Shown one piece after another: positions 410 to 11,504 of a stretch of DNA of 41,633 nucleotides. Position numbers and translations under genes: made by a program. Below the pieces are notes generated by a model, which was not told the DNA's origin, did no database searches, and saw only the letters and a list, made by a program, of their open reading frames with translations. Source of the DNA: a virus; the IMG/VR virus record IMGVR_UViG_3300036766_000655, positions 1-41,633 of that record; one strand, 5' to 3'. Positions within the stretch are counted from its first letter, which is position 1. The number at the start of each line of letters is the position of its first letter.

Positions 410-625
410 TTATTTTTTAGCATCCTGCAAATTAGCATCCTGCAAATTAGCATCCTGCAAATTAGCATCCTGCAAATTAGCATCCTTCAAATTAGCATAC
501 CGCAAATTAGCATCCTGCAAATTAGCATACCGCAAATTAGCATCCTGCAAATTAGCATCCTGCAAATTAGTATGCCGCAAATCTACTAAAGAAAATAAGA
601 CGGTTTTGATGTCTTTAACTATCAT
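410..625 (-). CDS. Short pentapeptide-repeat protein (71 aa)
   Basis: After about 18 leading residues the protein is almost wholly A-N-L-x-x pentapeptides (ANLQD, ANLRY, ANLKD), about ten in a row. Pentapeptide repeats fold into a right-handed quadrilateral beta-helix with four repeats per coil. Ten repeats give only about two and a half coils, short for the family. Larger relatives such as Qnr and MfpA mimic DNA and act on gyrase, but nothing here shows that target. The start ATG at 625 follows AGGGGGTG and AAGG. A promoter with TTGCAA and TATAAT lies at 685-658. The stop is just upstream of the Cys-rich gene, suggesting one transcript. The DNA repeat makes repeat-number change by slippage likely. 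Confidence 0.75.
   Translation of the reverse strand: MIVKDIKTVLFSLVDLRHTNLQDANLQDANLRYANLQDANLRYANLKDANLQDANLQDANLQDANLQDAKK
419..578. repeat. 15-bp tandem repeat, about 10 copies
   Basis: The unit read on the plus strand is AGCATCCTGCAAATT with small variants (CCT/CCG, TCC/TAC). It is in phase with the pentapeptide code on the minus strand. Near-identity at DNA level, more than the protein code needs, points to recent expansion by slipped-strand copying. The other frames encode artefactual ISILQ or MLICR strings. Confidence 0.9.
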
Positions 626-4575: not shown

Positions 4576-4655
4576 CATAGCTGGCGCACTTTTACATAAA
4601 AGAACAATTTAAACTAAGACTAAAAAGAATAAAGACAAAACACAATCATACACAA

Positions 4656-5402
4656 ATGAATAAGGATAATTTAGCATTGTTACCAGATAATGTTTTAACT
4701 TTAAAAGCCAAAGAAGTTAATATAAATGTAGATGGAGAGATTATATCGCTTGGGGATATGGAAAAGATTTTCTTTCTTTCTAAATTAAATCCTGATCCCT
4801 CATTCATTGCTTCTATTTTAAAGTTAGATGTTACAAAAGTTGATAGAATTATACATTCTACAAAGTTTCAGGAAACAATTAATTCTTATCTGTCTGAATA
4901 CGTCAACAAGAATGTTGGCGAGGGAATACATGAATTAACTTTACGCTATGGAGATTTTTTAAAAGAATGTTTTATTTCTTTGCGTACTAGTGTAGGAATG
5001 AGAATAAGAAAGGCTATTGAAGATGATAAGGTTCTTGATGCCAAGTGGTTAAATATTCCTACACTAGAGAAGTTAATGAAATTAGAATTTGCTTTACATG
5101 GTTTGCCAGTAGATTTAAAAGGCGTTGTAGTAGGACATAAAAGAAGTCAAGATAAATCGCAAGACGAATTGGTTAGCAGTTTAAAGGAAGTTCAAAATAC
5201 TTTAGAATCATTCAAGGATGGTAACAAGTTTTCCCCTAGCAAGTTTCTTATAAGCGGTCCTAGCGGTCCTATAGAAGCAGGGGAAGCAGTAGTAGCAGAC
5301 AAGGGACAAGGGGAAGCAGGGGAACAGGAACAGGAAGAAGAAGCAAAAGAAATAGAAAAAGAAATTCAAGAAATAATTTTGAATCAGGATGAAGAAGAAT
5401 AA
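4656..5402 (+). CDS. Terminase small subunit-like DNA-packaging protein (248 aa)
   Basis: Called mainly by position, directly before the large terminase and first in the late operon, and by an N-terminal helical region (about residues 35-85: EKIFFLSKLNPDPSFIASIL..VTKVDRIIHSTKF) that looks like the winged-helix or HTH fold of small terminases. The middle (residues 90-155) is helical and may form the oligomer core. The last 50 residues are low-complexity and very acidic (GEAGEQEQEEEAKEIEKE), as in many packaging adaptors that contact the large subunit. Small terminases recognise phage DNA and load the ATPase. No clear ribosome site precedes the ATG; the leader is A-rich. Family membership is inference. 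Confidence 0.65.
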   Translation: MNKDNLALLPDNVLTLKAKEVNINVDGEIISLGDMEKIFFLSKLNPDPSFIASILKLDVTKVDRIIHSTKFQETINSYLSEYVNKNVGEGIHELTLRYGDFLKECFISLRTSVGMRIRKAIEDDKVLDAKWLNIPTLEKLMKLEFALHGLPVDLKGVVVGHKRSQDKSQDELVSSLKEVQNTLESFKDGNKFSPSKFLISGPSGPIEAGEAVVADKGQGEAGEQEQEEEAKEIEKEIQEIILNQDEEE

Positions 5403-5825
5403 TTTATTTCTGTTTCCATTTATACCTTATGTTAAATAATAAAAGAATAAGAACAAACAAAGAAGAAGAAACAAAAACTTTTTAGAATGAAAGGGAAACA
5501 AATTTAATTCGATACTGTATCCCTTAGAGAAAAGAAAAAGAAAAGAAAAAGAAAATAAAAAATAAATTTAAAATAAAAATAAAAAATAAAATAAAAAGAA
5601 AAACAAAATAAAAATAAAAATAAAAAGTTTGAAACAAAAAAGAATAAAAAAATAAAACTAAAATAAATATAAATATAGTTAGAGATATATCAGAAAAAGA
5701 ATAAAAAAATATTAAAAAGAATTTTTCAAAAATGAGAAAATACTTTTTCGACTCTTTTTGGCCGATTTTGTAACGCTACCCTACTCATATGTATAGGGTA
5801 TATATATAGGGTACAAGAAAAAAAA
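5403..5825 (+). other. A-rich gene-free gap with inverted TACCCTA/TAGGGTA repeats
   Basis: About 420 bases inside the late operon without a gene. 5530-5720 is almost pure A/T/G low-complexity sequence (AAAAT and AAAAG runs on the plus strand). Just before the large terminase gene, TACCCTA (5777-5783) can pair with TAGGGTA (5794-5800), and a second TAGGGTA lies at 5807-5813, 12 bases before ATG 5826. This switch-like pair could control translation of the terminase. No promoter seen. Confidence 0.55.
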
Positions 5826-6623
5826 ATGGATTTAGAAACATCAGAAAAACTAAAACGTGCTAATGAAGATGGGATAGAACTGTTAAAAAGAAAAATCATA
5901 CAAGAAAAAGACGTAAATTTATTTATTGAGTTTACAATAAAGGATGAAAAAACCGGAACCAAAATAAAACAAGATACAATTCATTTAGCTATGCAGGAAC
6001 ATATTGATTATTGTTTTTCGCATAACATACTTTGCGGGATTCTTGCACCTTGGGGACATGGAAAAACAGGACAAATATTAGCGCGTGGTTTACATGAATT
6101 AGGAATGAATCAGAACATGCGGATAAAAATTTTGTGTAATAATGATTCTACAGCAAAGGCGCGGCTTAACGTTATGGGAAAATATATTGATAAAGATAAA
6201 GACTTTCACAAAATCTTCCCTTCTTGTGTCCCTGAAGATAAAGAAAAATGGAATAGTCACGAATTAATTGTTAAAAGAACAACATTCTCTAAAGATGCTT
6301 CTATTCAATGTTATGGCGTATTATCAAGCGGAATAGGTGGACGTACCGATTTACTTATAGCTGATGATGTTATGGATATGCGAAATTGCATATTGCAACC
6401 AAAATTGAAAAATCAGATAATTGAAACATTCTTCAACACTTGGTTATCTCGCGCAGATGGAATAGACTTTAAGGTTATTTACATTGCTACCGTTTGGACT
6501 GAAGATGATTTAAGTATGCAATTAATTAAAAATCCTGCTTTCTCTTTTCTCCATATGGGTATTAATCAAGGAATTACTGGAATTAGTTGCAAGTATTACA
6601 ATAGGGAATTACAAACTAATTAG
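5826..6623 (+). CDS. terL: Terminase large subunit, ATPase half (split gene, 265 aa)
   Basis: This is the packaging motor ATPase domain only. It has the Walker A APWGHGKT (residues 74-81, like the PRGHGKS type), Walker B with catalytic acid DLLIADD (175-181), and coupling motif ATVWTEDDL (221-229). It ends at residue 265, just where the linker to the nuclease should begin, whereas usual large terminases run 430-600 residues as one chain. The missing C-terminal nuclease is encoded separately at 8268-9005, after four unrelated small genes. The two products probably assemble, or the ATPase works with the nuclease in trans. The ATG follows an A-rich leader with no good Shine-Dalgarno site. Confidence 0.9.
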   Translation: MDLETSEKLKRANEDGIELLKRKIIQEKDVNLFIEFTIKDEKTGTKIKQDTIHLAMQEHIDYCFSHNILCGILAPWGHGKTGQILARGLHELGMNQNMRIKILCNNDSTAKARLNVMGKYIDKDKDFHKIFPSCVPEDKEKWNSHELIVKRTTFSKDASIQCYGVLSSGIGGRTDLLIADDVMDMRNCILQPKLKNQIIETFFNTWLSRADGIDFKVIYIATVWTEDDLSMQLIKNPAFSFLHMGINQGITGISCKYYNRELQTN

Positions 6624-6636
6624 GAAAAAAAAGAAT

Positions 6637-7026
6637 ATGTCAAATCCAATTAAGATTGATTCATTAGTAGGTGGTTCTAATAAATTTTATATTGGACCTT
6701 ATTTAGTTTTAGCTGAATTAAAATTACTATTTTTAAATGATATAATTGCAGATGAAGATGATAATTATTATACTATCATGGTAGGATATGGTGATACAGA
6801 TATAGTATTACTAGAGATTAAAAATAATATTATCTTTAAAGAAAAAGATGGAGTTTTAGATTTTACTTCCTTATTACTTGCTATTATAGAAGATAATCCT
6901 AATCCTTATGTTTCTTTTGCGGAAGGTTTTATTAATTTTTCTATCCTTAAAACTGGCTTACCTACTGGTTTAGAAGGTTCATATTTTATTATGAATCAAT
7001 GGGAAAAAGCAGAATTAGCAGGGTAA
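6637..7026 (+). CDS. Unknown protein A between the terminase halves (129 aa)
   Basis: Unrecognised, acidic, beta-rich protein (IDSLVGGSNKFYIGPYLVLAELKL..., DTDIVLLEIKNNIIF). It starts 13 bases after the terminase ATPase stop and is followed 7 bases later by gene B, so it is part of the late transcript. Base and codon use match the surrounding structural genes (TTA, ATT, GAT rich), giving no sign of recent foreign origin. No nuclease, HNH, GIY-YIG or intron-encoded motif can be seen, which argues against a homing endonuclease as the cause of the split. Role unknown. Confidence 0.8.
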   Translation: MSNPIKIDSLVGGSNKFYIGPYLVLAELKLLFLNDIIADEDDNYYTIMVGYGDTDIVLLEIKNNIIFKEKDGVLDFTSLLLAIIEDNPNPYVSFAEGFINFSILKTGLPTGLEGSYFIMNQWEKAELAG

Positions 7027-7033
7027 TAATAAA

Positions 7034-7429
7034 ATGTCATTAAAAAAGATTATTGATAATTCTTTTGGGATACCACTTATTGTTGATCCTTTATCGTATC
7101 AATATTTTGATTCACTTTTATTTAATCAAAGTGCAAGGGTTTTAAATTCTTGTTTAGTCCCTGAAAAAACTGTTACTGTTCCATTTATGATTACTGCTTT
7201 TAATTGTGGATTTAATTTTGAAAAATATGTTTTAATGGCTAGATTTACAAATATTACAGATGATTTTTTTGTTGAACCTTTTCTAGCTTTTAAAAGAAAT
7301 GATATGAATATTTTTTATGATATTGCTGGGAAAGGTGAATGGTTAGAATTTTTTATCGAAAATTATGATGATACGAATAATGCTGATTTTGGTAATCTTG
7401 CCATTTTTACAGAAATTGAATCATTATAA
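7034..7429 (+). CDS. Unknown protein B between the terminase halves (131 aa)
   Basis: Unrecognised. It is rich in Phe and Asn with alternating hydrophobic strands (VPFMITAFNCGFNFEKYVLM, DFFVEPFLAFKRND) and an acidic C-terminus (ENYDDTNNADFGNLAIF). Length and beta-rich, acidic style resemble neighbours A and C, but I see no clear sequence match among them. The start ATG lies 7 bases after the stop of A. It is likely a small globular protein, perhaps virion-associated or a late modulator of packaging. That is a guess from position alone. Confidence 0.8.
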   Translation: MSLKKIIDNSFGIPLIVDPLSYQYFDSLLFNQSARVLNSCLVPEKTVTVPFMITAFNCGFNFEKYVLMARFTNITDDFFVEPFLAFKRNDMNIFYDIAGKGEWLEFFIENYDDTNNADFGNLAIFTEIESL

Positions 7430-7443
7430 AAGGAGAAAAATTA

Positions 7444-7830
7444 ATGAGTATGCTTAGAGCGTTTGATTATGTTTTTCTTTTTGCTGGCGGAGAAATAGAA
7501 GTTCCTATTTATATCTGCTTTGCAAACGCAAATATTGAATCTATCGTTTTAGCCCACGAAAAAGATGTTCCTGATTCTAATGTATTATATACAGAGTTAC
7601 AAATTATTGATAAAGGATTGGATGGAACAGGAAATGATATTTTGTGGTATGTTACAAATAATCCTGATGATGAAGAACATTTTATTTCTTTAGTTTCTTA
7701 TAAAATGCACGAATTATTATTAAATAAACTAGTTAATAAAAATCATGTTTATACTATGAAAAAAATTGATACTGGCGGGAATATTGAATTAGGAACAACT
7801 AATTTAATTATTAACGAAAGGCGGTATTAA
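7444..7830 (+). CDS. Unknown protein C between the terminase halves (128 aa)
   Basis: Unrecognised. This is the only one of the four inserted genes with a classical ribosome site (AAAAGGAGAAAAATT before ATG 7444). The first part is hydrophobic and beta-rich (FDYVFLFAGGEIEVPIYICF). The middle is acidic (NNPDDEEHF) and the end more basic (VNKNHVYTMKKIDTGG). It shares length and the opening Met-Ser with A and B. No catalytic motif was recognised. Expected to be made late together with the packaging proteins. Confidence 0.8.
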   Translation: MSMLRAFDYVFLFAGGEIEVPIYICFANANIESIVLAHEKDVPDSNVLYTELQIIDKGLDGTGNDILWYVTNNPDDEEHFISLVSYKMHELLLNKLVNKNHVYTMKKIDTGGNIELGTTNLIINERRY

Positions 7831-7834
7831 TACT

Positions 7835-8266
7835 ATGGCTGAACCTATTTTAACAAGTGAACAAAAAAATGAATTAGTTTTAATGATGGATGTTCTTATA
7901 AGTGATATTATTAATTTAGCTGAATATAGTCCTTATTTTATGGCTTTTATTATTAAGGAAGGTAATCAGGAAATTGGATGTAAGGTTAAATTTTACGGTT
8001 GTGAAAAATGTATGAAATTTAATAATATCCAAATGTATGATTGTTCTAAATGCTGGTTTTCATGGTGGATTAATGAAAATCAATCTTCTCAATATCCCGC
8101 TGTTTCAAATAATGATATTAGTATTGCTTTTGGTAATGATATGAATGAAAGAAAAAAACGGGATTATTTTTCATGTTATCCTCTTTTATTTAAAGCCGAG
8201 AAGATGAAGGATAAACAAGTTATTATTGATTGTTATAATGAAATGAAAGCATACTTAGAATTATAA
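7835..8266 (+). CDS. Unknown protein D with two CxxC pairs (143 aa)
   Basis: Unrecognised. It contains CEKC and CSKC about 15 residues apart (within residues 55-75), the pattern of a zinc ribbon or knuckle, followed by WFSWW and then a charged, helical C-terminus. Its stop and the start of the terminase nuclease gene are one base apart (TAAAATG), so translation is coupled. The nuclease half itself carries a Cys cluster (TNCKCGFC), so a zinc-mediated contact between D and the nuclease is conceivable, but that is only a hypothesis. No HNH motif seen. Confidence 0.8.
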   Translation: MAEPILTSEQKNELVLMMDVLISDIINLAEYSPYFMAFIIKEGNQEIGCKVKFYGCEKCMKFNNIQMYDCSKCWFSWWINENQSSQYPAVSNNDISIAFGNDMNERKKRDYFSCYPLLFKAEKMKDKQVIIDCYNEMKAYLEL

Positions 8267-8267
8267 A

Positions 8268-9005
8268 ATGAATTTTAATCAAATAGAAATTCCCCTTTGG
8301 GAAGCTAAATGGGGAAAAGAAGCATTAGAAAAACATTTAGAGAGAGTTGGCCCGATTGCTTTTAACAGGGGACTAAGAAATATTGCACTTAGTTCTAAAG
8401 ATTCTACTTTTCCTTCATTTGAAAAATGTATAAAGAAAGAATTAAAGATTCAAGAAGTTCTTACAGATAATTGTTTATTATATTCTGGAGTAGATTTATC
8501 AACTAAGAAAAGGCCGGGAACTTGTATTTTTACTTTAGCAAACGATAGAAAAAGAAAATTATATATTCCTGTTGATATTAGATATGGCAAATGGACCGGA
8601 CCAAAGTTATTAGAACAAATATATTTAGTTCAAGAACAATATTCACCTAAATCGTTTCTTGTAGAAAATAATGCTTTACAGGATATGGTAATTGATTTTT
8701 TAAAGGAAGATGTTAAAAAAGGAAAACATTCCTCATCCCCTTTCATTAAAGGACATTTTACGGGTTCAAACAAGTTAGATTTAGATAATGGAGTTGATTC
8801 ATTGGAAGTAGATTTTTATAATGATAGATGGATAATTGCATTAGGAGATAAAGAGCATAAGACTAACTGTAAATGCGGATTTTGTAAATGGCAAGATGAA
8901 ATGAATGGACATCCATTTTATGAAACTACAGATAGCGTAATGGCTTGCTGGCTTGCTAAAGAAAATGCTAGAAAATCTATGTCAGGAAGAATTAGAATAT
9001 TATGA
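8268..9005 (+). CDS. terL: Terminase large subunit, nuclease half (split gene, 245 aa)
   Basis: RNase H-fold nuclease domain of the large terminase, which cuts concatemeric DNA during packaging. Acidic metal-binding residues are visible: Asp77 in YSGVDLSTKKRPG, Glu133 in FLVENNALQD and Asp222 in TTDSVMACWLAKENAR. The N-terminus (IPLWEAKWGKEALEKHLERV, GPIAFNRGLRNIA) is the usual linker that follows the ATPase domain, so the two halves together make one complete terminase of about 510 residues. An inserted Cys cluster (C201, C203, C206) lies between the second and third acids. The gene ends in TGA overlapping the next ATG. Confidence 0.88.
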   Translation: MNFNQIEIPLWEAKWGKEALEKHLERVGPIAFNRGLRNIALSSKDSTFPSFEKCIKKELKIQEVLTDNCLLYSGVDLSTKKRPGTCIFTLANDRKRKLYIPVDIRYGKWTGPKLLEQIYLVQEQYSPKSFLVENNALQDMVIDFLKEDVKKGKHSSSPFIKGHFTGSNKLDLDNGVDSLEVDFYNDRWIIALGDKEHKTNCKCGFCKWQDEMNGHPFYETTDSVMACWLAKENARKSMSGRIRIL

Positions 9006-9251: not shown

Positions 9252-11504
9252 ATGCCTAAAATCCTAGAAGAAATTATTAATAAAAATTTTGGAAAAGAAA
9301 TGATTACAAATTCTTTTCCGATTAGAAAAAATGCTAATATTGCATTAATGCAAAAAGATTCTATTGCGTTTGCTAGTGGTGATTATTTTAAGCAAACTCA
9401 TCCTATTGAAGATAAAACATTACTTGAAGCTATTGAAATAAATGCTTGGGTATATGCTTCTATTTATAAATTAGCTTCTTCTGTTGCGTCTGTTCCTTTT
9501 AGAATTTATTATTTAATGGAAGATGGTTCACTTAGCGAGATAACTTACGAACCAGAATTTAAAGTTTTTCGCAATCCTAATCCTTGGTTTACAAGATTTG
9601 ATTTTTGGGAAGCTACAACTATTTATTTAGAAGCTACTGGAAAATGTTTTTGGGAATTAGTTAAGGACCAATCTGGTTTAGTTTTTGAAATGTATGCTTT
9701 GAATCCGTCTAAAATGGAAGCAATAAAAGATAGGAAGAAGTTCATCATTGGATGGAAATATACTTTAGCTACAGGAAAAACTATAGAATATGAAACTAAC
9801 GATATTGTGTTTTTACGTTATTTTAATCCAAATAATCCTTATGATGGATTGTCCGCTTTAAAAGTAGGTTCTACAGCACTAACAACTGACTTATACTCGC
9901 AACAATATTCTATGTCATTTTTCAAAAACTCCGGTCGTCCTGATGGATTATTAATTTATGATTCTGAATTAGCAGATGAAGATTATGATAGAATTAGGAG
10001 AAATTGGAATAAGACGCATGAAGGAGTATCAAAAGCGCATAGGATAGCAATTATTGAACAAGGTATGGACTATAAACAAATTAGTATTCCGCAAAAAGAT
10101 ATGGAGTTTATTAGTCAAAGAAAATATTCTAGGGATGAAATTTTGGCTTGTTTTGGAGTACCGCCAGCTTGTGTAGGAGTTTTTGAATCTGCTATTAAAG
10201 CAAATGCAGAAACACAAGAAAGAATGTTTTGGACTGAAACTATGACGCCTAAACTAATTAAAATGTCTGAATCAGTTCAATTAGCAATTATGCCAATTCT
10301 GTTAGGTTTTGAAGGTGCAAAAAATAAATATGATTTAAATAAAATTTATACTATGTTTGATGTTTCTAAAATTCATGTTCTTTCTGAAATATGGCGGGCA
10401 AGGGAAGAATATATTATTGAACATGTTAAGAATGGAACTATAAGCAGAAATGAAGCTAGAATGATTTTAAATTATATTTATGGTGAAGTAATTAAATTCC
10501 TTCCGTTTGAAGGTGGAAATGATGTTATACTACCTTCAAATGTTACAACTAAATTAGGTGAAGTAAAGCCTACACAATCGGAACAAGCTAAACTTTATAA
10601 GTCTGTAGATGGAGAAAATCGTTTAGATTGCGAAATAAAAAAATTAAAAAGTTTACCAGATTCACCTAAATATTTAAAGTTAATGAAGCAAGAAAATGAC
10701 GCTAATTTTAATTTAGATAATCCTATAGCGGTTAAAACTTTAAATATTAAACCTATGTTAGTTGCTACTAGTCAATTAAACAATGAATTAATTAGACAAA
10801 TTATTTTAGAAAGTTTAGCCGCTGATATGGGGACCAAAGAAATTCAAGCGGCTATTTGGGATAGGTTTTCAAGTTCTTCTGATTTTTCTTTAAATAGAAC
10901 TACAAAAATTGGAAGAACAGAAATAACGCAAATTGCTAATGCTTCAACCTTAGACGCATATAAGCAATCAAATGTAGTTTCTAAAAAAGTTTGGCTTACT
11001 AGCAGGGATAAAAAGGTTAGGCCAGCTAGTAAATTTGATAAAGGGGACCATAAGATATTAGAAGGACAAGAAAGGGAATTAGATGAAGCATTTTCTAATG
11101 GTTTAATGTATCCGGGGGAACAGGGAATGAAACCGGAAGAAAATATTAATTGTAGGTGTACTATGCTTTCTAAGATAAAAGAAAATGCGAAAGGAAGTAA
11201 AGTTTCTAAGATTCTTTCTGATGATAATGAAATTATGAAAGCTATTTTATGGAAGAAGTTTGTTGGGAAGATTGATAATTATTCATTACCAATTAAAAAT
11301 ACATTCTTACAATTATTTGAACAAGCGGGAAATGAAGTTATTGAAAAATTAAAAAAGTTTACTCCTACTAAAGATAATGTTGATTTATTCTTATTGGACC
11401 AGACTAAACAAGTTGAGGAAATGGAAAAGAATTATTTACCTTTAAAGGAAAGTATTTATAGGGAACTTGGAGAAAATCAATTTAAAGAATTGGTAGGAGA
11501 ATAA
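9252..11504 (+). CDS. Portal protein fused to a MuF-like minor head protein (750 aa)
   Basis: The first about 400 residues fit an HK97-type portal: ITYEPEFKVFRNPNPWFTRF, VFLRYFNPNNPYDGLSALKV, and QQYSMSFFKNSGRPDGLLI, then FGVPPACVG. The portal forms the dodecameric DNA gate at one head vertex. Residues about 540-640 match the phage Mu gpF/SPP1 gp7 head-morphogenesis domain: IGRTEITQIANASTLDAY, KKVWLTSRDKKVRPASKF, DHKILEGQ, and the terminal NCRC signature. A further 110 charged, helical residues follow. Portal-MuF fusion explains the unusual length (portals are normally 400-500). MuF proteins can carry toxin or ejected domains, but the tail here shows no recognisable one. The ATG follows an A-rich region without a strong ribosome site. 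Confidence 0.9.
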   Translation: MPKILEEIINKNFGKEMITNSFPIRKNANIALMQKDSIAFASGDYFKQTHPIEDKTLLEAIEINAWVYASIYKLASSVASVPFRIYYLMEDGSLSEITYEPEFKVFRNPNPWFTRFDFWEATTIYLEATGKCFWELVKDQSGLVFEMYALNPSKMEAIKDRKKFIIGWKYTLATGKTIEYETNDIVFLRYFNPNNPYDGLSALKVGSTALTTDLYSQQYSMSFFKNSGRPDGLLIYDSELADEDYDRIRRNWNKTHEGVSKAHRIAIIEQGMDYKQISIPQKDMEFISQRKYSRDEILACFGVPPACVGVFESAIKANAETQERMFWTETMTPKLIKMSESVQLAIMPILLGFEGAKNKYDLNKIYTMFDVSKIHVLSEIWRAREEYIIEHVKNGTISRNEARMILNYIYGEVIKFLPFEGGNDVILPSNVTTKLGEVKPTQSEQAKLYKSVDGENRLDCEIKKLKSLPDSPKYLKLMKQENDANFNLDNPIAVKTLNIKPMLVATSQLNNELIRQIILESLAADMGTKEIQAAIWDRFSSSSDFSLNRTTKIGRTEITQIANASTLDAYKQSNVVSKKVWLTSRDKKVRPASKFDKGDHKILEGQERELDEAFSNGLMYPGEQGMKPEENINCRCTMLSKIKENAKGSKVSKILSDDNEIMKAILWKKFVGKIDNYSLPIKNTFLQLFEQAGNEVIEKLKKFTPTKDNVDLFLLDQTKQVEEMEKNYLPLKESIYRELGENQFKELVGE

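What the first reader, a model, noticed from the sequence alone, without database searches (positions are those of the whole stretch)
5826..9005. Large terminase split into ATPase and nuclease genes around four unknown genes
The Walker A, Walker B and coupling motifs end at 6623; the linker and nuclease triad (Asp77, Glu133, Asp222) resume at 8268. The 1.64 kb between contains four small genes (A-D) that fill the space almost exactly. This is not an intron: no endonuclease, no obvious core, and both halves have their own starts and stops. A split terminase with an inserted gene block suggests either trans-assembly of the motor or A-D acting with it, for example D with its CxxC pairs near the Cys cluster of the nuclease half.
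Basis: partly seen in the sequence, partly recalled or inferred. Interest (0 to 1): 0.8.

Follow-up and report, generated by a model that had tools for sequence, protein, structure and literature searches.

The report
Naturally split phage DNA-packaging motor protein
In this family of uncultured phages the DNA-packaging motor protein (large terminase) is made as two separate proteins, an ATPase and a nuclease, with four fast-evolving genes in between; related phages have split the same protein several times over, although cutting it at the same place in phage T4 was reported to stop the motor.

Summary
Confirmed: window 5826-6623 encodes a complete terminase ATPase and 8268-9005 a complete terminase nuclease. 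They match adjacent stretches of one TerL family, with four genes (A-D) filling 97.6% of the 1644 nt between them. It is not an assembly artefact: the same split occurs in three other related viruses (four contigs). It is not an intron or split intein: the longest non-coding stretch is 14 nt, no Rfam intron was found, and there are no intein sequences. Catalytic residues are intact and both halves are under purifying selection. The nearest relative outside the group (L044) has the halves as overlapping genes with nothing between, so the split probably came first and A-D later. Across about 80 relatives most TerL are one chain. Splits recur (at least 5-6 changes on the tree), including halves 5-16 kb apart. 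I conclude the motor assembles in trans. A-D are clade-specific, fast-evolving passenger genes; C is predicted to be a beta-sandwich. I found no report of such split TerL in the open papers held. T4 TerL cut at the linker reportedly loses translocation, so these are natural test cases.

The parts
4656..5402 (+). putative small terminase (TerS) gene, 248 aa, upstream of the ATPase half
   Evidence: position; only a weak PHROG TerS match (phrog_2538, E 0.21); conserved in L003 and L009
5826..6623 (+). stand-alone terminase ATPase (TerL N-terminal half), 265 aa
   Evidence: phrog_38 positions 291-470, E 8e-19; dN/dS about 0.10
6045..6068 (+). Walker A, APWGHGKT (residues 74-81)
   Evidence: G79 and K80 identical in 22/22 split and 62/62 single relatives
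6351..6368 (+). Walker B, LLIADD (residues 176-181)
   Evidence: D180 and D181 invariant
6483..6509 (+). coupling motif III, IATVWTEDD (residues 220-228)
   Evidence: T222, W224 and D228 identical in all 22 split members
6637..7026 (+). gene A, 129 aa, predicted all-beta (low-confidence model)
   Evidence: orthologues in L006, L003, L009 at 37/31/18% identity; AF2 pLDDT 55
7034..7429 (+). gene B, 131 aa, probable paralogue of C
   Evidence: 47/45/31% identity; profile match to C, E 9e-5, probability 59%
7444..7830 (+). gene C, 128 aa, predicted eight-strand beta-sandwich
   Evidence: 67/61/44% identity; AF2 pLDDT 83; nearest folds are 127-128 aa viral-library proteins without names, TM 0.68-0.69
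7835..8266 (+). gene D, 143 aa, Cys-rich; absent from L009
   Evidence: 62/38% identity in L006/L003; no D in L009
8268..9005 (+). stand-alone terminase nuclease (TerL C-terminal half), 245 aa
   Evidence: phrog_38 positions 485-647, E 6e-12; 97/80/71% identity in relatives
8493..8495 (+). nuclease catalytic Asp76
   Evidence: identical in 20/20 split and 63/63 single
8664..8666 (+). nuclease catalytic Glu133
   Evidence: identical in 20/20 split and 63/63 single
8931..8933 (+). nuclease catalytic Asp222
   Evidence: identical in every member with a residue there
8856..8885 (+). His/Cys cluster HKTNCKCGFC, a family feature older than the split
   Evidence: present in split members and in single-chain L045, L048, L050-L052, L054
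9002..9220 (+). small hydrophobic protein, 72 aa, overlapping the nuclease stop
   Evidence: conserved downstream in L003, L006, L009
9252..11504 (+). portal protein with MuF-like C-terminal part, anchors the packaging module
   Evidence: PF04860 E 2e-71 and PF04233 E 1e-7

Best explanation
The phage makes its large terminase as two separate proteins from one tightly packed operon. Shown: the genes, their integrity, their conservation and the recurrence of the split. Inferred: the ATPase and the nuclease/translocation protein dock non-covalently at the portal as the two rings of the packaging motor, replacing the covalent hinge by protein contacts. The likely history is that the TerL gene first broke at the inter-domain linker into two overlapping cistrons, as still seen in L044. 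The junction then became a neutral landing site, and a block of small, fast-evolving passenger genes (A-C beta-sandwich-like, probably minor virion or surface proteins; D unknown) was inserted in the ancestor of the window group.
For: Consecutive, complete PHROG 38 matches. Same split in four distinct viruses from separate assemblies. Intact catalytic residues in all split members and dN/dS of 0.10-0.26 for both halves. No intron, no in-frame linkage and no intein sequence on either half. L044, a sister with 99/96 support, has the halves overlapping with no insert: ATPase stop 4621-4623, nuclease ATG 4612. In another supported clade every member is split: G001/G002 about 15 kb, G019 about 16 kb, G015 about 13 kb, L058 about 5 kb, L069/L114 overlapping, so joining by RNA processing is implausible there. 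At least 6 single/split changes on the tree (5 without the abutting cases); one origin rejected, AU p = 3e-6. A-D evolve at dN/dS 0.32-0.98 beside conserved halves.
Against: No expression, protein or structural data. Phage T4 TerL cut at the linker was reported to keep ATPase and nuclease activity but lose DNA translocation (review PMC3012670), so trans-assembly needs adaptation not shown here. The L044 branch is long (about 1.1). Some abutting splits elsewhere could be frameshifts or sequencing errors. The role of A-D rests on one good model (C) and indirect evidence. The complex itself could not be modelled.
Confidence: 0.8

Rival explanations
1. A-D are working parts of the split motor: one or more of them bridges or regulates the two halves.
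For: The block sits between the halves in all four viruses and A, B and C are always kept.
Against: Most split lineages lack any such genes; D is dispensable; A-D are the fastest-evolving genes of the region while the halves are nearly frozen (window against L006: A 37%, B 47%, nuclease 97% identity), unlike co-evolving interface partners; no homologues elsewhere.
Confidence: 0.1
2. A mobile intron or intervening element carries A-D, and TerL is rejoined by RNA splicing or trans-splicing inteins.
For: TerL is a known intron and intein target (PMC11878797, PMC12363816, PMC7886860), and relatives here carry TerL inteins.
Against: 97.6% of the gap is coding, longest non-coding stretch 14 nt, against about 350 nt of non-coding sequence in phage group I introns (PMC11878797); no Rfam intron; no endonuclease among A-D; no intein sequence on the halves; halves far apart in relatives.
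Confidence: 0.05
3. Splitting was selected to escape host immunity that senses TerL (Avs-type sensors), since separate halves may be recognised less well.
For: The ATPase is related to a TerL with a solved structure, 8dgc, which I recall from memory as an Avs3-terminase complex.
Against: No direct evidence; my literature search found nothing on this point; neutral splitting explains the data as well.
Confidence: 0.06
4. The halves are decaying fragments and another packaging ATPase does the work.
For: Isolated halves of T4 TerL do not translocate DNA (PMC3012670).
Against: Strong purifying selection and invariant catalytic residues in both halves; long-lived split clade. The window contig may be incomplete, so absence of a second TerL is not proven.
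Confidence: 0.04

Closest known systems
Single-chain TerL of the PHROG 38 / T7 gp19 type (DNA maturase B, PDB 4bij)
   Same: ATPase with Walker A/B and coupling motif, RNase H-fold nuclease triad, domain order, place beside the portal gene
   Different: here the two domains are separate genes with four unrelated genes between
Intron- or HEG-interrupted TerL (Bastillevirinae SIOphi, Jug phages, Enterococcus phage iF6)
   Same: TerL reading frame interrupted by inserted DNA
   Different: those carry ribozymes, VSR or homing nucleases; where tested the introns are spliced. Here the break is at the domain linker with ordinary genes
Intein-bearing TerL (crAss-like phages; L015, L016, L103, L107-L109 here)
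   Same: extra coding sequence in TerL
   Different: inteins are in frame and spliced out; none on the window halves
phi29 gp16 packaging ATPase
   Same: motor whose nuclease function is uncoupled from the ATPase
   Different: gp16 keeps a covalent vestigial nuclease domain (PMC7672431); here an active nuclease is a separate protein
ctLwi270 (MW202554.1)
   Same: GenBank annotates two 'terminase large subunit' CDS separated by a 62-aa ORF
   Different: its first CDS also has an intein-like insert near the linker (by eye; no Pfam hit); a more distant TerL
Split DNA polymerase III alpha and RNA polymerase subunits of jumbo phages (PMC7824862)
   Same: core enzyme encoded as separate domain proteins by separate genes
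   Different: different enzyme

Membership tests
Large terminase (TerL), PHROG 38 type | ATPase domain with Walker A, Walker B and coupling motif | tested here: met
Large terminase (TerL), PHROG 38 type | RNase H-fold nuclease with D/E/D triad | tested here: met
   (by sequence profile)
Large terminase (TerL), PHROG 38 type | both domains on one polypeptide | tested here: not met
   separate ORFs in four viruses
Large terminase (TerL), PHROG 38 type | ATP-driven packaging activity | not testable with these tools
   -
Group I/II intron in TerL | ribozyme core in the intervening DNA | tested here: not met
   no Rfam match; at most 14 nt of non-coding sequence in one stretch
Group I/II intron in TerL | spliced transcript | not testable with these tools
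   -
Split intein (protein trans-splicing) | intein N/C parts fused to the two halves | tested here: not met
   halves end and start at the domain boundary
Capsid decoration / small virion proteins (for A-C) | beta-sandwich fold | tested here: inconclusive
   C met in a predicted model; A low confidence; B only by profile similarity to C
Capsid decoration / small virion proteins (for A-C) | presence in virions | not testable with these tools
   -

The most novel reading that the evidence does not exclude
Several phage lineages independently run their DNA-packaging motor with the ATPase and the nuclease/translocation domain as unlinked proteins, in some cases encoded many kilobases apart. The covalent hinge thought essential for coupling in T4 would then be dispensable, replaced by a non-covalent interface.
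Probability: 0.7. Interest if true: 0.75.

Novelty: new variant of a known kind. Interest (0 to 1): 0.62.

Why it matters
TerL is the hallmark enzyme of tailed phages and is usually described as one two-domain chain, with the hinge as a key coupling element. Natural two-protein versions offer a direct test of whether the hinge is needed, ready-made systems for mixing mutant ATPase and nuclease subunits in one motor, and a warning for viral taxonomy and annotation that use full-length TerL as a marker. The linker also emerges as a tolerant insertion point for genes.

Tried and rejected
RNA intron (Rfam at gathering and permissive thresholds; coding density). Split intein. Assembly artefact (same arrangement in independent assemblies of three related viruses). 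Programmed bypass or readthrough (1.6 kb with four genes in other frames). Insertion with target duplications: no direct repeats at the borders. D-nuclease zinc partnership. Pfam and PHROG searches of A-D: nothing significant. Searches for B, C and D relatives elsewhere: only the same viruses. Host: no match of the nuclease in genome contigs; two single-chain ATPase relatives in a Planctomycetota and a Thermoplasmata MAG, too distant to name the host. Fold search of C in the PDB: only generic beta-sandwich matches. The L106 nuclease-before-ATPase order was not used as main evidence because that nuclease frame is broken. About eight abutting splits were not counted as firm.

Full report
What is there. 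The window is an IMG/VR virus record. Its structural module runs TerS-like gene, ATPase, A, B, C, D, nuclease, small hydrophobic gene, portal-MuF, capsid genes, all on the + strand. The ATPase ORF matches PHROG 38 positions 291-470 and the nuclease ORF positions 485-647. In single-chain relatives the linker reads, for example...ISEDFQSIECESAFKGKFRIPVWSKWNKKEL (L046); in the window the ATPase ends ...INQGITGISCKYYNRELQTN* and the nuclease begins MNFNQIEIPLWEAKWGKEAL. So the break lies in the linker and no conserved sequence is lost. All catalytic residues are intact. No + strand terminator-like site lies within the region scanned, and promoter-like matches are no more than chance; the genes are separated by 1-14 nt, consistent with one operon.

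Relatives with the same arrangement. L006 (ATPase C-terminus, A-D, nuclease 97% identical), L002/L003 (ATPase 81%, nuclease 80%) and L004/L009 (73% and 71%) have the same split. L009 lacks D and has an extra gene between A and B. In L003 D is only 38% identical and has lost a Cys of its first CxxC pair. L006 carries an extra gene between the nuclease and the small hydrophobic gene. With the window these are four distinct viruses in five contigs.

Evolution of the block. Between the window and L006, dN/dS is 0.10-0.14 for the ATPase end, nuclease, small gene and portal, but 0.43-0.75 for A-D; against L003 and L009 A-D are 0.32-0.98 while the halves stay at 0.10-0.26. Synonymous divergence of A-D against L003 and L009 is not clearly higher than in the flanks (against L006 it is), so the low protein identity mainly reflects fast amino-acid change. 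dN/dS below 1 and conserved gene order show that A-D are real genes. B and C match at profile level (E 9e-5; 0.011 by hmmsearch), although plain BLAST between the two window proteins finds nothing; A is only suggestively similar. C is predicted as an eight-strand beta-sandwich (pLDDT 83), like 127-128 aa proteins in the viral structure library that carry no names (TM 0.68-0.69). This points to small virion-type proteins, but that function is inferred.

Splitting is recurrent. An ATPase-profile scan returned 76 relatives. Most are single chains of about 490-570 aa. Split cases: window group (1.6-1.8 kb between halves); L015/L016 (about 1.05 kb, plus a Walker A intein confirmed by Pfam in L015); L057 (2.1 kb); L115 (0.5 kb, two small ORFs); L058 (5.3 kb, genes between); G001/G002, G015 and G019 (about 13-16 kb); L069, L114, L013, L044, L053, L055 and L062 (abutting or overlapping) and L056 (74 nt). 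On a careful tree of 37 members at least 6 single/split changes are needed (5 if abutting ones are left out), and one origin is rejected (AU p = 3e-6). One clade (L058, L064, L069, L104, L106, L113, L114; also L096 and L102 in the ATPase tree) contains only split members with differing spacing, so the state is stable. The window group's sister is L044 (99/96), where the nuclease ATG at 4612 overlaps the ATPase stop at 4621-4623. The simplest history is split first, insertion of A-D second. Direction cannot be proved by parsimony alone. HNH genes lie next to the ATPase in L113 and upstream of the nuclease in L028, so homing endonucleases may have helped break or move the halves there; none is seen in the window block.

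Mechanism. In T4 the ATPase faces the portal, the nuclease domain forms the outer ring and holds the translocation groove, and a flexible hinge couples them; the domains also share a >1000 square-angstrom interface of charged pairs and hydrophobic patches. Cutting T4 gp17 at the linker kept both activities but abolished translocation (review PMC3012670). A natural split motor therefore probably relies on a stronger non-covalent interface or on being held by the portal.

What it is not. No intron, no intein, no artefact (see rivals). The D/Cys-cluster idea fails because D is dispensable and the cluster is a family trait also in unsplit TerL.

Novelty. Searches of open full texts found TerL introns, inteins and endonuclease insertions, but no description of stand-alone ATPase and nuclease genes. 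Subscription papers and annotation guides were not searchable, and one GenBank phage (MW202554.1) is already annotated with two TerL genes. I rate it a new variant of a known kind.

Noticed in passing
L015 536-2380; L016 44-1873; L103, L107-L109: TerL inteins: in L015/L016 inserted at the Walker A GK^T site (Intein_splicing in L015, Hom_end_hint/Hom_end in L103); L015/L016 TerL is split as well.
   Followed up: partly
L113 6672-7280; L028 505-1293: HNH (HNH-AP2 in L028) endonuclease genes lie directly after the ATPase half and upstream of the nuclease half in phages whose TerL halves are about 15 kb apart.
   Followed up: partly
L106 4196-4979 and 5494-6732: Nuclease gene lies upstream of the ATPase gene (reversed order); its reading frame is broken near the N-terminus in this contig.
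   Followed up: partly
L124 5773-7659: A single-chain TerL in a Planctomycetota MAG carries about 80 extra residues in the ATPase-nuclease linker that look like a translated bacterial palindromic repeat (SERSEES...).
   Followed up: no
L006 2626-3396: Extra gene between nuclease and small hydrophobic gene, with FGGKxRL and DPPY motifs (Dam-like methyltransferase by eye; no Pfam hit at E 0.01).
   Followed up: no
window 9252-11504: Portal protein fused to a MuF-like domain in one 750-aa chain (PF04860 + PF04233).
   Followed up: no
window 5403-5825: Long A-rich non-coding stretch (runs of AAAATA/AAAAGA repeats) between the TerS-like gene and the ATPase; possibly the pac/cos or promoter region.
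   Followed up: no
window 410-625 (- strand): Small pentapeptide-repeat-like protein (ANLQD/ANLRY repeats).
   Followed up: no
L015 2381-3437; L057 721-2788: Gaps between TerL halves with no convincing + strand genes and no Rfam intron match; content unexplained.
   Followed up: partly
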